Positions 1 to 4,727 of a stretch of 52,485 bases of DNA are shown here, piece by piece. Position 1 is the stretch's first letter. Each line of letters begins with the position of its first letter. The notes under the pieces were generated by a model. The model was not told the DNA's origin. It made no database searches and worked only from the letters and a program-made list of their open reading frames with translations. A program made the translations under genes and the position numbers. The DNA is taken from positions 1 to 52,485 of the forward strand of contig WRMG01000006.1 of assembly GCA_009777255.1 (NCBI GenBank), in the 5' to 3' direction. This DNA comes from Oscillospiraceae bacterium. GTDB lineage: Bacteria; Bacillota; Clostridia; Oscillospirales; UBA929.

Positions 1-729
1 AAGCTGATCGAGGGCTTTCTGTCGGAGCTGTGGAAGGACGACGGCTCAAAGCTTGCCGGAGCCATGCGCTACAGCCTTTTATCCGGCGGCAAGCGTATAC
101 GCCCCGTTATCACGCTGGCGTTCTGCGAGATGTGCGGCGGCAGGGCTGAGGACGCGCTGCCTGCGGCGTGCGCCGTCGAGCTGATCCACACATATTCGCT
201 GATCCATGACGACCTGCCCTGTATGGACGACGACAACTTCCGGCGCGGCAGGCCCGCGAACCATAAGGTGTACGGCGAGGCTATGGCGCTGCTGGCCGGC
301 GACGGTTTGTTGAGCTATGCCACGGTTTTGCTGTCCGGCAGGACGTCTGCTTTGGCCGATGCTGTCGGCGGAGCCGCGTTTGACATGGTGCGCGGTCAGG
401 CGCTGGAAATCGAGGGCTGCGCCGATACGCGCGAGGTGTACAGGCTGAAGACAGGCGCGCTGTTTATCGCCGCGGCTAAAGCGGGCTGTATCATAGCAGG
501 CGCGGGCGCTGAAGGTCTGGACGCGGCGGCGGCTTACGCCAACGCTCTGGGCTTGGCGTTCCAGTACAGGGACGACATGCTCGACATGGGCGGGCCCTGT
601 TCGGACGGCATAGACCGCGCGGGGGAAATAATCAGGCTTACCGGCGCCGCGAAGGAAGCGCTCGCGCCGTTTGATAACAGCACATTCCTGCTGTCGCTTG
701 CCGACAGCCTGTCCGAACGCGAAATGTAA
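1..729 (+). CDS. ispA: Farnesyl/geranyl diphosphate synthase (polyprenyl synthetase), 5'-truncated by window edge
   Basis: Condenses isopentenyl diphosphate with allylic diphosphates to give C15 (or C10) prenyl diphosphate in the cytosol. The reading frame is open from base 1, so the true start lies upstream; 242 residues are visible. The GGKRIRP substrate-binding motif (visible residues 28-34) is followed by the first Asp-rich motif DDLPCMD (70-76) and the second, RDDMLD, near residue 190. After the second motif only about 47 residues remain, and the usual lysine/GSD/K-TY segment found there in bacterial IspA is not recognisable, so the C-terminal lobe looks shortened. It heads the run ispA-yuiD-OLE RNA-oapA-dxs, the expected isoprenoid context. 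Family assignment is firm; chain-length specificity is inferred. Confidence 0.93.
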   Translation, partial: KLIEGFLSELWKDDGSKLAGAMRYSLLSGGKRIRPVITLAFCEMCGGRAEDALPAACAVELIHTYSLIHDDLPCMDDDNFRRGRPANHKVYGEAMALLAGDGLLSYATVLLSGRTSALADAVGGAAFDMVRGQALEIEGCADTREVYRLKTGALFIAAAKAGCIIAGAGAEGLDAAAAYANALGLAFQYRDDMLDMGGPCSDGIDRAGEIIRLTGAAKEALAPFDNSTFLLSLADSLSEREM

Positions 730-776
730 GGGCGCGCGCCGCGCGTCCGCGGGTTATCCGCAGAGAGGTGACATTA

Positions 777-1247
777 TTGCTGTTTTTAGTATCGTTTTTC
801 CGTAATAACACGGACTGGCTGACGGGCAATTATATACTGAACGTGTCGGTTCTGGCGTTCTGCACCGCGCAGCTGGTGAAAATAATTATTTATTCGCTGA
901 TGAACAGAAAACTTGACTTCAGCCGGCTGTTTGAGTCCGGCGGTATGCCCAGCTCACACGCGGCCACCGTAACGGCGCTTGTTGCCACGGTTGGGAAGGT
1001 CTGCGGCACGGGGTCGCCGGAATTCGCAATCGCGGCGATCGTGGCGATGGTGGTCATGTACGACGCGCTGAATATCCGGCGCGCCGCGGGCGAACAGGCG
1101 AAGCGGATAAATTTTTTAATGGAGAACTGGCAGCATGTCAACACGCCGGAAGCGTTTGAGCGCCAGCTGAAAGAGCTGCTGGGGCACACGCCGTTTCAGG
1201 TTTTGATCGGCGCGCTTATGGGGCTTGCGTTCGGGCTGCTTATATGA
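777..1247 (+). CDS. Divergent PAP2-family (DUF212/YuiD-like) membrane protein
   Basis: Integral membrane protein of 156 residues with about four hydrophobic segments and the family signature GGMPSSHAA (about residues 55-63), which resembles the phosphatase motif of PAP2 acid phosphatases. I chose TTG at 777 because the run GAGAGGTGA at 763-771 is a good ribosome binding site at the right distance; the GTG at 768 lies inside that site. It sits 47 bases after ispA and ends 9 bases before the structured RNA. PAP2-like activity on prenyl or lipid diphosphates would suit the isoprenoid context, but that is inference; the DUF212 family has no firmly assigned reaction. Confidence 0.85.
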   Translation: MLFLVSFFRNNTDWLTGNYILNVSVLAFCTAQLVKIIIYSLMNRKLDFSRLFESGGMPSSHAATVTALVATVGKVCGTGSPEFAIAAIVAMVVMYDALNIRRAAGEQAKRINFLMENWQHVNTPEAFERQLKELLGHTPFQVLIGALMGLAFGLLI

Positions 1248-1256
1248 TAAACTGAG

Positions 1257-1830
1257 ATACGGAGACGCGGTATTCTAGTCGGGCCGCCCGGGCTTGAAGA
1301 CGGGCCTAAAAATCCGTTTGAGGGCACATCGATGAAGTCCCTTGTGCTTGCTTCTTACGCCCAGTTTGGGGTGGGTGCTGGGGGTTAAGGCTTCAGGGCC
1401 GGCCGCAATGGCATGCGGTCAACACCCTTTTGCCGTGGAGACCCGCTCTTGTGGAGCAATCCACGAAGCGGGGAAGAACCTGCATTGCGGCGAAAGCTGT
1501 GTGCAGAGTAGCCTGCCTTGAGTGGACATCGGCGGGATAGGGGATTAAACCACGCCGCCCGTGGCCGCGGAAGCGTGCTATCGCCCCTTGAAAGCCGGTC
1601 TGCAAAAGAGGCTAGAGTCCGGCGCGGCCCGTTATGGAAAACATCTAGACCGTCTTTACGGGGTTCCTGGGGGATTACAGTGCGTGCTTAACGGCAATTC
1701 GGTCCCGCGTGCGGTAACGCCGCGGCGTTCGCTTTAATGGGAAACCGCCCTGTTGGCGACGAGGGGCAGCGGACGGGGAAAGCCAACCGAACCTATGCCG
1801 CAAGATTTATCCCGGGAACCGTCTCCGTAT
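1257..1830 (+). ncRNA. ole: OLE RNA (ornate, large, extremophilic RNA), probable
   Basis: A 600-base stretch without a credible gene, lying between ispA/yuiD and oapA-dxs, where OLE RNA is found in Bacilli and Clostridia. OLE RNAs are about 600 nt, form a membrane ribonucleoprotein with OapA and are linked to Mg2+ homeostasis and stress tolerance. Visible structure: a closing helix of 10 perfect pairs, 1257-1266 (ATACGGAGAC) with 1821-1830 (GTCTCCGTAT), brings the ends together. A 12-bp hairpin lies at 1442-1472 with one bulged C. A hairpin at 1480-1506 has a GAAA loop. A hairpin at 1705-1725 has a GTAA loop (CCGCG/CGCGG outer, GCG/CGC inner stem). Two GNRA loops and a closed outer helix argue for a folded RNA. 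Identity rests on context, length and structure; I could not compare it with the family alignment. Ends are set by the closing helix and may be off by tens of bases. Confidence 0.84.
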
Positions 1831-1848
1831 ACGCAACAGGAGGAATAT

Positions 1849-2082
1849 ATGAGTTACGTGTATAAAACAATAGAGAGCGACAAACTTTCTTCCGTTTTTG
1901 ATTTGCCGCTGTCGCTGCTTGGCAAAAAGGTTGAAGTCATCATCAGGCCGCTGCCGGAAAAATTGACAGCGGAGAGAGGCTCGGCTTTCGGCTGCCTTAA
2001 AAAATATGCCGACCCGTCGCTTATACACGAAGAGGACGGTGTCTGGGAACGGGCGGTGGCGGAAAAGTATGCGGATAGCTGA
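1849..2082 (+). CDS. VapB-like antitoxin
   Basis: A 77-residue protein whose first half has the short basic/hydrophobic pattern of antitoxins paired with PIN toxins (LPLSLLGKKVEVIIRPL at about 19-35). Its C-terminal tail (KKYADPSLI then WERAVAEKYAD) resembles the toxin-wrapping tail of VapB antitoxins. The ATG at 1849 is preceded by CAGGAGGA at 1837-1844; a longer frame from 1753 would run through the structured RNA and is rejected. Its last 14 bases overlap the PIN toxin gene, the usual antitoxin-toxin arrangement. It starts 18 bases after the closing helix of the RNA, so it is probably transcribed with it. Function is inferred from the pairing. Confidence 0.8.
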   Translation: MSYVYKTIESDKLSSVFDLPLSLLGKKVEVIIRPLPEKLTAERGSAFGCLKKYADPSLIHEEDGVWERAVAEKYADS

Positions 2083-2443
2083 CGCGAATGTTCTTCTGCG
2101 TTATATCCTTGACGACCATGAAGAGTTGTCGTCTAAGGCCCGCCGGATTATTGACCGCAATGTAATTTATGTTCCTGTCGAGGTTCTGTGTGAGGTCGTG
2201 TTTGTTTTGCTGAAAGTTTATAAGGCGGAACGGAACGATATAGGCCGGCAGCTCTGTAGTTTTTTCGTGAAAACAAACTGTATATTGCCGAATAGGGAAG
2301 CTGTTCTGAAAGGGCTGGAGTTGTTCGCGGAAAACAATCTCGATTTTGTTGATTGTATTCTTGTCGGGTATATGAGCGTTGAAGGCGCGGAGATTGACAC
2401 GTTTGATTCCAAACTGCTGAGAGTATTAAAAAGTTTTGAGTAA
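2069..2443 (+). CDS. PIN-domain ribonuclease toxin (VapC-like)
   Basis: A 124-residue PIN-domain protein, expected to cleave RNA in a metal-dependent way and to be held inactive by the preceding antitoxin. The acidic metal-binding residues are visible: Asp in IADANVLLRY near the N terminus, Glu in VLCEVVFVL, Asp in DFVDCILVG and Asp in IDTFDSKLL near the C terminus. The ATG at 2069 lies inside the antitoxin gene (14-base overlap), implying translational coupling. It stops 6 bases before oapA. AT content and codon choice look higher than in oapA and dxs, suggesting the pair was acquired separately. The family call is firm; the RNA target is unknown. Confidence 0.87.
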   Translation: MRIADANVLLRYILDDHEELSSKARRIIDRNVIYVPVEVLCEVVFVLLKVYKAERNDIGRQLCSFFVKTNCILPNREAVLKGLELFAENNLDFVDCILVGYMSVEGAEIDTFDSKLLRVLKSFE

Positions 2444-2449
2444 TCAGTT

Positions 2450-2983
2450 ATGAAAAAACGGGTGAAACCATCAATTAAATGGGCGCTTAGGCTGCTTTTG
2501 TGGTCGTTTGCCATCTCCATTGCGCTGACGCTTTTTTCGGCGCGCGCGCTGTCCGGCGCGGGGCTTATATCGGCGGCGCTGATTCTGCTGGTGTTCGTGG
2601 CGCTGGGCGTGGGCTTCGATATGCTGGGGGTCGCGGCGGCTACGGCGCTTGAAAAGCCGTTCCACGCCATGGCGGCGAACCGCGTAACGGGCGCCTCGGA
2701 GAGCATCAGGCTGATAAAAAACGCCGACAGGGTGGCGTCGTTTTGCAGCGATATGGTAGGCGACATCTGCGGCATTGTCAGCGGCGTCAGCTCGGCGGCG
2801 ATCGTCACCGTCCTGACCCGGGACCTCTCGGCGTCCGTCACGGCCACGATGCTCGTGGTATCGGGGCTGCTGGCGGGGCTGACGGTGAGCGCCAAAGCGC
2901 TGTTCAAGCCGGTCGCCATGCGCCACAACACACAAATTGTCCTGATGATAGGGCGTTTGATACACATAGTTAAAGGAAAGTGA
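2450..2983 (+). CDS. oapA: OLE-associated membrane protein OapA
   Basis: A 177-residue protein with about four membrane segments (roughly 11-30, 38-62, 104-124 and 130-150) joined by a basic, amphipathic middle. Position (after the structured RNA, before dxs), size and topology match OapA, the protein that binds OLE RNA and anchors it in the membrane. The sequence has FDMLGVAAATA (57-66) and a D101-x3-D105 motif within FCSDMVGDICGIVSG; such an acidic pair is conserved in OapA as far as I recall. No strong ribosome binding site precedes the ATG at 2450, so translation may be coupled to the toxin gene ending 6 bases upstream. In the standard arrangement oapA follows the RNA directly; here two genes separate them. 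Confidence 0.85.
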   Translation: MKKRVKPSIKWALRLLLWSFAISIALTLFSARALSGAGLISAALILLVFVALGVGFDMLGVAAATALEKPFHAMAANRVTGASESIRLIKNADRVASFCSDMVGDICGIVSGVSSAAIVTVLTRDLSASVTATMLVVSGLLAGLTVSAKALFKPVAMRHNTQIVLMIGRLIHIVKGK

Positions 2984-2987
2984 AATA

Positions 2988-4727
2988 ATGCGGAAAAGGT
3001 CCGTGGCTGAACTGACGGCCGAATGCGCCGAGCTGCGCAAACGCCTTATAGCCAATATAGCCCAGACGGGCGGGCATCTCGCGTCGAACCTCGGCGCGGT
3101 GGAGCTGACGGTCGCGCTGCATCAGGTTTATAACACAGGCGTTGACCGCCTTATATTCGACGTCGGGCACCAGTGCTATACGCACAAGCTCCTGACCGGA
3201 CGCGGGTTAAGCTCCCTGCGCGCTTACGGCGGCGTCGCGGGCTTCCCTAAACCCAGTGAGAGCGCGCACGACGCGTTCGTCTCCGGCCACGCGTCAACCT
3301 CCATCTCCGCGGCGCTGGGCATGGCGCGCGCGCGGAGTATCCTTGGCGGCGGCTATCATGTCGCGGCGGTGATCGGCGACGGCGCGCTCACCGGCGGCCA
3401 GGCGTATGAGGCGCTGGCCGACGCGGGGCACAGCGGGTTGGGGCTGGTCGTCATACTGAACGATAACGAGATGTCGATAACCCGCAATGTCGGCGGCGTG
3501 GCAAAGCATTTGGCGCGGCTGAGAAACGGCCAGCAGTACTTTAAGCTGAAAAGGGTTTACCACAGGATGGTGGTAAGCGTCCCGGGCGGACGCGCGGCGG
3601 ACAGGACGCTGCACAGAATGAAAACGGGCATTAAGGAATACTTCTTCCCCAGCTCGCTGTTTGAGAGCATGGGCTTTACATACCTCGGCCCCGCCGACGG
3701 GCATGATCTGAAAACGCTGATACGCCTGCTGGAATACGCGAAAGGGCTGAACAAGCCCGTTCTGGTGCATGTCAACACGGTAAAGGGCAAGGGGTACGGC
3801 TTCGCCGAGCGGAACCCGTCGCGGTTCCACGGCGTCACGCGGTTTGACGTTGTCACGGGCGTGCCGGAGGCAAACGGCGAGCCGTCGTTCTCGTCGGAGT
3901 TCGGCAAAGCGCTCTTTGAGCTTGCCGTCAACGACAGGCGCATATGCGCCGTCACCGCCGCGATGGGCGACGCGACGGGGCTGAGGCAGTTTTCCAAAAA
4001 GCTGCCCAAGCGCTTCTTCGATGTGGGCATCTGCGAGGAGCACGCGGTCACGATGGCGGCGGGCATGGCGAAACAGGGGCTGCGCCCCGTCTGCGCGATA
4101 TACTCCACTTTTTTGCAGCGGGCATATGACCAGATACTACACGACGTCGCAATACTGAATCTGCCGGTCATCTTTGCCGTTGACCGCGCGGGGCTTGTGG
4201 ACGACGGCGAAACGCATCATGGCGTATTCGACGTTGCGTTTCTGAACAGCATACCGAACATGACGGTTCTCGCGCCCGCCTGCTATAACGAGCTGCGCAC
4301 CTGCCTGAAATACGCGCTGGAGCTGAAATCCCCCGTGGCGATACGCTATCCGCGCGGGCCGGAGGGCGCGTACAGGGGAAATTCGCTGAAAAACATCATG
4401 CTCCGCAAGGGCGGCGACATTACCCTCGCCGTTTACGGCACAACGGTAAACGACGCGCTTGCCGCCGCGGGCATGCTGGCGGACGACGGCATATCGGCCG
4501 GCGTTCTCAAGATTATGCGCCTTACGCCCGTTGACGCGGCTTATATGCCCGAGAGCGGAAGGGTGCTGTTTGTTGAGGAGGTCTGCCGCGAGGGGTCGGT
4601 CGCCCAGCGCCTCGGGTACCCGGGCCTGGCGATAGACGGATTCGCCGCCCACGGCGCGCCTGAAAGCCTGCGCGCCGGGCTGGGGCTTGACGCGGCGGGC
4701 ATTTACAAAGCCGTTAAAGCGCTGTGA
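2988..4727 (+). CDS. dxs: 1-deoxy-D-xylulose-5-phosphate synthase
   Basis: Thiamine-diphosphate enzyme that joins pyruvate and glyceraldehyde 3-phosphate, the first step of the non-mevalonate isoprenoid pathway. Visible motifs: TGGHLASNLG (27-36), FDVGHQCYTHKLLTGR (about 57-72), the thiamine-binding GDGALTGG (130-137) followed by ND, GPADGHD, the GKGYGFAE segment and ICEEHAVTMAAGMA with the catalytic Glu of the transketolase pyrimidine domain. At 579 residues it is somewhat shorter than the usual ~620, mainly at the N terminus. The ATG at 2988 has an AAAGGAAAG ribosome binding site. Only 4 bases separate it from oapA, and its stop overlaps the tlyA start, so the run is co-transcribed. Confidence 0.96.
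   Translation: MRKRSVAELTAECAELRKRLIANIAQTGGHLASNLGAVELTVALHQVYNTGVDRLIFDVGHQCYTHKLLTGRGLSSLRAYGGVAGFPKPSESAHDAFVSGHASTSISAALGMARARSILGGGYHVAAVIGDGALTGGQAYEALADAGHSGLGLVVILNDNEMSITRNVGGVAKHLARLRNGQQYFKLKRVYHRMVVSVPGGRAADRTLHRMKTGIKEYFFPSSLFESMGFTYLGPADGHDLKTLIRLLEYAKGLNKPVLVHVNTVKGKGYGFAERNPSRFHGVTRFDVVTGVPEANGEPSFSSEFGKALFELAVNDRRICAVTAAMGDATGLRQFSKKLPKRFFDVGICEEHAVTMAAGMAKQGLRPVCAIYSTFLQRAYDQILHDVAILNLPVIFAVDRAGLVDDGETHHGVFDVAFLNSIPNMTVLAPACYNELRTCLKYALELKSPVAIRYPRGPEGAYRGNSLKNIMLRKGGDITLAVYGTTVNDALAAAGMLADDGISAGVLKIMRLTPVDAAYMPESGRVLFVEEVCREGSVAQRLGYPGLAIDGFAAHGAPESLRAGLGLDAAGIYKAVKAL

What the first reader, a model, noticed from the sequence alone, without database searches (positions are those of the whole stretch)
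1849..2443. Toxin-antitoxin pair inserted between OLE RNA and oapA
In the standard arrangement oapA follows the RNA closely. Here a VapBC-like pair starts 18 bases after the closing helix of the RNA and ends 6 bases before oapA. It is on the same strand and probably on the same transcript, so expression of RNA, toxin and RNA-binding protein would be linked. oapA lacks a good ribosome binding site of its own and may depend on translation of the toxin gene.
Basis: partly seen in the sequence, partly recalled or inferred. Interest (0 to 1): 0.62.

Follow-up and report, generated by a model that had tools for sequence, protein, structure and literature searches.

The report
Toxin-antitoxin pair inside OLE RNA operon
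In one incomplete bacterial genome assembly, a small toxin-antitoxin gene pair of foreign base composition sits between the gene for the large OLE RNA and the gene for its partner protein OapA, which are nearly always direct neighbours; it looks like a chance insertion in a genome rich in such pairs, although it probably ties production of OapA to that of the toxin.

Summary
A full-length OLE RNA (1246-1841, 452 bits) ends in a perfect terminal helix at 1830. Eighteen bases later a 77-aa putative antitoxin gene begins (1849-2082). It overlaps a PIN-domain toxin gene (2069-2443, all four catalytic acidic residues kept), which ends 6 bases before oapA (2450-2983). Related two-gene modules with the same layout occur elsewhere, including a paralogue in the same genome. 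The insertion is unique among the OLE loci read: 166 of 173 informative loci have oapA directly downstream (within 550 nt), five are unlinked, and one other has an unrelated insertion. The toxin gene has the lowest GC of the long ORFs in the window (44% against 48-64%), so it is probably an acquired module. The genome is rich in toxin-antitoxin genes, and its closest relative carries a different pair in the same operon interval, where OLE and oapA have been lost. Chance insertion into a permissive site in a TA-rich lineage is therefore the best explanation. oapA has a poor Shine-Dalgarno site and no promoter or terminator was found between the genes, so co-transcription and dependence of oapA on toxin translation are plausible but untested. 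A functional link to the OLE complex has no support.

The parts
64..729 (+). polyprenyl synthetase gene (ispA-like), upstream end of the conserved operon
   Evidence: PF00348, E 1e-43
768..1247 (+). DUF212 / divergent PAP2 gene
   Evidence: PF02681, E 1e-46
1246..1841 (+). OLE RNA, full length
   Evidence: RF01071, 452.5 bits
1257..1267 (+). 5' arm of the terminal helix of OLE
   Evidence: 11/11 complementary to 1820-1830
1820..1830 (+). 3' arm of the terminal helix of OLE
1838..1844 (+). Shine-Dalgarno sequence AGGAGGA of the antitoxin gene; possibly the original site of oapA (inference)
   Evidence: -10.3 kcal/mol with the anti-SD; sequence
1849..2082 (+). putative antitoxin, 77 aa, family unassigned
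   Evidence: homologous genes precede homologous PIN genes in L060, L061, L063, L082, L083, L084
2069..2443 (+). PIN-domain (VapC-like) putative toxin, 124 aa
   Evidence: PF01850 50 bits; D5, E42, D95, D113 invariant; model pLDDT 94.6
2450..2983 (+). oapA, OLE-associated protein A; its ATG is in the same frame as the toxin, two codons after the toxin stop
2988..4727 (+). dxs, downstream end of the conserved interval
   Evidence: 77% identical over 574 aa to a gene at the same place in G001; named from that family by knowledge

Best explanation
A small, horizontally acquired type II toxin-antitoxin module of the VapBC kind inserted between the OLE RNA and oapA in a lineage rich in such modules. 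It sits on the operon strand and probably relies on the operon's transcription. The antitoxin uses the strong ribosome site just after OLE, which may originally have served oapA. oapA, now with almost no site of its own, is probably translated by ribosomes that finish the toxin gene. The toxin is probably a PIN ribonuclease neutralised by the antitoxin; nothing ties it to the function of the OLE complex. Shown by sequence: identities of OLE, the PIN gene and oapA, order, spacing, foreign composition, uniqueness of the insertion, weak oapA site. Inferred: toxin/antitoxin activity, shared transcript, coupling, and use of oapA's former ribosome site.
For: Pair found in 1 of 177 OLE loci read, although the surrounding order pps-(DUF212)-OLE-oapA-dxs is widespread. 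Toxin GC 0.437 against 0.484-0.64 in the 46 long ORFs scored in the window. Paralogous pair in the same genome at G000:C14 and homologous pairs in distant bacteria such as Methylobacter. High TA load: 13 PIN+ParE matches in 1.17 Mb against 0 for both in most of the 20 sampled genomes outside the family. Same-genus G001 carries a different TA-like pair (DUF4258 + YgiT-type zinc finger) between DUF212 and dxs. Weak oapA SD and strong antitoxin SD. No + strand promoter- or terminator-like site between 1250 and 2450. Joining the two ATGs gives CAGGAGGAATATATGAAAAAACGG, a well-spaced ribosome site and start for oapA 18 nt after OLE.
Against: The antitoxin has no recognised family, and its fold prediction (pLDDT 71) matches nothing. 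No genome of the same species without the pair is available to show the exact insertion ends. The capture of oapA's ribosome site rests on a 5-base match (TATGA) that includes both start codons and could be chance. The promoter scan covers only one sigma-70 consensus. The SD comparison takes the best of several candidate starts in relatives, which favours them.
Confidence: 0.75

Rival explanations
1. The pair is a functional partner of the OLE complex: one transcript sets the levels of RNA, toxin and OapA so that toxin action follows OLE stress responses.
For: Same strand, tight spacing (6 nt to oapA, 18 nt from OLE), weak oapA ribosome site. OLE is linked to stress adaptation in the literature (PMC12265935).
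Against: Absent from all other OLE loci read. Related pairs exist without OLE beside them. Foreign composition. The genome has many such modules.
Confidence: 0.06
2. Addiction: the pair stabilises the OLE-oapA block. Same-genus relatives have lost OLE and oapA; a deletion of the block here would also remove the antitoxin and be punished.
For: G001, G002, G008, G011, G014, G016 and G017 have lost OLE and oapA from the interval; the window genome keeps both, with the pair between them. Chromosomal TA modules are discussed as stabilising neighbouring DNA (abstracts PMC2654758, PMC12548467).
Against: One genome, so no statistics. Relatives in f1 such as G003, G007 and G009 keep OLE and oapA without any pair. 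In G001 a TA-like pair is present although OLE is gone.
Confidence: 0.08
3. Assembly artefact: the pair was joined into the OLE locus by mis-assembly of a metagenome-derived genome.
For: The genome is 64% complete in 55 contigs and the pair differs in composition.
Against: Both flanks are in the expected order (DUF212-OLE and oapA-dxs) with only about 600 nt between them, and neither the OLE end nor the oapA start is broken. Two independent wrong joins would be needed.
Confidence: 0.05

Closest known systems
VapBC type II toxin-antitoxin systems (PIN-domain toxins, Pfam PF01850)
   Same: PIN toxin with the four acidic residues; short co-directional upstream gene overlapping the toxin gene; pair conserved in homologues; weak fold matches to several solved VapC toxins
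   Different: Antitoxin belongs to no Pfam family; no operator or promoter of its own recognised; located inside an OLE RNA operon
OLE RNA - oapA locus (Rfam RF01071; OapA)
   Same: Full-length OLE followed on the same strand by oapA and dxs, preceded by pps and DUF212
   Different: In 166 of 173 informative loci oapA follows directly; here two genes intervene and oapA lacks a good ribosome site
DUF4258 / YgiT-type zinc-finger pair in the same interval of the same-genus genome G001
   Same: TA-like pair between DUF212 and dxs, on the same strand
   Different: Unrelated families; OLE and oapA are absent there

Membership tests
VapBC type II toxin-antitoxin | Toxin with a PIN domain | tested here: met
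   PF01850, 50.1 bits against a cut-off of 23.6; the best fold matches are largely PIN proteins, though with weak scores (TM at most 0.51, no E below 0.001)
VapBC type II toxin-antitoxin | Catalytic acidic tetrad | tested here: met
   D5, E42, D95 (or D92) and D113 invariant in seven homologues
VapBC type II toxin-antitoxin | Small antitoxin gene directly upstream, usually overlapping | tested here: met
   1849-2082 overlaps 2069-2443 by 14 nt; similar arrangement in six homologous loci
VapBC type II toxin-antitoxin | Antitoxin with a known DNA-binding fold (AbrB, Phd, RHH or HTH) | tested here: inconclusive
   No family hit; predicted strand-helix-strand N terminus at pLDDT 71; no fold match
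VapBC type II toxin-antitoxin | Ribonuclease activity neutralised by the antitoxin | not testable with these tools
   needs expression experiments
VapBC type II toxin-antitoxin | Self-regulated promoter upstream of the antitoxin | tested here: inconclusive
   Only 18 nt lie between the OLE terminal helix and the start codon; no promoter-like site on the + strand in 1250-1849, but the scan is limited
OLE RNA | Full match to the OLE covariance model | tested here: met
   452.5 bits, model 1-616, gathering score 50
OLE RNA | oapA as direct downstream neighbour (common, not absolute) | tested here: not met
   Two genes intervene here; oapA follows after them. Five of 173 other loci are unlinked altogether, so this does not exclude membership

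The most novel reading that the evidence does not exclude
In a lineage that is losing OLE and oapA, a toxin-antitoxin pair lodged between them works as an addiction lock on the OLE-oapA block, and makes OapA synthesis depend on toxin translation, so that toxin, RNA and OapA rise and fall together.
Probability: 0.08. Interest if true: 0.6.

Novelty: new member of a known kind. Interest (0 to 1): 0.3.

Why it matters
It shows that the very stable OLE-oapA gene neighbourhood can be interrupted without visible damage to either partner, and gives a natural case in which OapA synthesis may depend on a toxin gene. The comparison also shows that OLE and oapA have been deleted from this operon in several members of one bacterial family, which makes these genomes useful for asking what the RNA is needed for. 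As a toxin-antitoxin system the pair is ordinary.

Tried and rejected
(1) The pair as a standing part of the OLE operon: rejected, none in 176 other OLE loci. (2) Annotating the antitoxin by family: no hit in Pfam, NCBIfam, PADLOC or PHROGs; AlphaFold model weak and no PDB fold match. (3) TA pairs as a general habit of this operon interval: rejected beyond the genus; 34 of 35 OLE-lacking intervals measured are 39-268 nt with no inserted gene, only G001 has a pair. (4) Horizontal regain of OLE/oapA in this genome: dxs groups firmly with G001 (100/100) but the oapA tree is unresolved near the window gene; synteny favours vertical inheritance, not proven. (5) Flanking direct repeats as a mark of transposition: only the trivial TATGA match at the two start codons. 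(6) Papers joining OLE and toxin-antitoxin: four hold both terms, and none is evidently about such a pair at an OLE locus, judged by title and abstract only.

Full report
What is there. The window is the first 52,485 bases of contig 6 of an incomplete assembly (1.17 Mb, 55 contigs, 64% complete). It contains one full-length OLE RNA at 1246-1841 (452.5 bits), whose terminal helix pairs 1257-1267 with 1820-1830 without a mismatch. Eighteen nucleotides after the helix an ORF of 77 codons starts at 1849, behind a strong AGGAGGA ribosome site. It overlaps by 14 nt a 124-codon ORF at 2069-2443, whose stop lies 6 nt before oapA (2450-2983).

What the two genes are. The second ORF is a PIN-domain protein (PF01850, 50 bits). 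In seven homologues D5, E42, D92, D95 and D113 are invariant. AlphaFold gives a confident model (pLDDT 94.6); its closest solved structures are largely PIN proteins, among them several VapC toxins, but with weak scores (TM at most 0.51, no E below 0.001). The first ORF matches no family in four libraries. However, homologous short genes precede homologous PIN genes, with the same overlap style, in a paralogous locus of the same genome (G000:C14), in G011 and G021, in a Methylobacter assembly and in two clostridial assemblies. Its C-terminal half carries the conserved pattern G-L--YA-P-LI--E--AW--A--EK. I call it a putative antitoxin by position and conserved pairing, not by family.

How usual is the arrangement. 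I read the sequence downstream of OLE in 117 genomes of the same order and in 60 genomes from across the phylum. Four order loci are cut by contig ends. Of the remaining 173, 166 have oapA on the same strand within 550 nt, five have no oapA nearby (G005, G006, G287, G347, G371), one (G115) has about 1.7 kb with a small membrane protein and an IS200-like transposase gene, and one is the window. Neither the toxin nor the antitoxin was found downstream of any other OLE. The conserved order is pps-(DUF212)-OLE-oapA-dxs, and the window keeps it apart from the inserted pair.

Origin of the insertion. The toxin gene is 43.7% GC, below the 46 long ORFs of the window scored with it (48.4-64%). The genome holds 13 PIN and ParE matches in 1.17 Mb; its relative G001 has 29 and G011 has 26, while most of the 20 sampled genomes outside the family have none of either. 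A pair landing in a given operon gap is therefore not remarkable here. The closest relative, G001 (dxs 77% identical; grouped 100/100), lacks OLE and oapA and holds a different pair between DUF212 and dxs: a DUF4258 protein (97 bits) and a YgiT-type zinc-finger protein with a weak MqsA match. A Phd/ParE pair follows dxs. In 34 other OLE-lacking genomes the same interval is empty, 39-268 nt. So two of three genomes of this genus carry a TA-like pair in this interval and none of the other intervals measured does; the high TA load of both genomes is the simplest reason.

Expression. The + strand between 1250 and 2450 has no promoter-like or terminator-like site by a simple consensus scan. Pairing of the region before the oapA start with the anti-Shine-Dalgarno is -2.2 kcal/mol, third weakest of 52 oapA genes and weaker than the median of random window segments (-3.5); the antitoxin has -10.3 and dxs -8.4. 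The oapA ATG is in the same frame as the toxin, with the codons TAA TCA GTT between. Termination at the toxin stop and re-initiation at oapA is the most likely way oapA is made; this is inference. If one copy of the shared start region is taken away with the insert, the flanks read CAGGAGGAATATATGAAAAAACGG, a good ribosome site and start for oapA at a distance from OLE seen in relatives. The pair may thus have come to lie between oapA and its original ribosome site. The supporting match is only five bases including ATG, so this stays a suggestion.

Judgement. The finding is real and correctly described. The reading as a linked RNA-toxin-OapA expression unit is possible at the level of transcription and translation. 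A functional meaning for the OLE complex has no support: the pair occurs in one genome, has foreign composition, and belongs to a module type common in that genome. An addiction effect on a locus that relatives have lost is the most interesting untested reading.

Noticed in passing
L145 and L159 (G001:C46), between DUF212 and dxs: The closest relative has lost OLE and oapA from this operon and has a DUF4258 / YgiT-type zinc-finger pair in the interval, plus a Phd/ParE pair just after dxs.
   Followed up: partly
G002, G008, G011, G014, G016, G017 (L161, L162, L147, L165, L163, L164): OLE and oapA are both absent and DUF212 (pps in G011) directly abuts dxs with 39-185 nt between: joint loss of OLE and oapA in this family.
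   Followed up: yes
G005, G006 (L047, L037, L184, L185) and G287, G347, G371 (L096, L098, L095): OLE has no oapA within the sequence read downstream (1.9-4.3 kb); in G005 and G006 oapA lies on another contig, beside dxs. OLE and OapA can be unlinked.
   Followed up: partly
L054 (G115), 0-1674 nt after OLE: A 1.7-kb insertion with a small membrane protein gene and an IS200-like transposase separates OLE from oapA.
   Followed up: partly
L183 (G188): oapA next to dxs although no OLE was found in that genome (99% complete); either OLE is missed or OapA persists without it.
   Followed up: no
G021: C41 and C94 (L073, L075): Two oapA copies in one genome, one beside OLE and one not.
   Followed up: no
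window 2441-2452: The toxin stop codon and the oapA start are in one frame, two codons apart, so stop-codon readthrough would fuse the PIN toxin to OapA.
   Followed up: no
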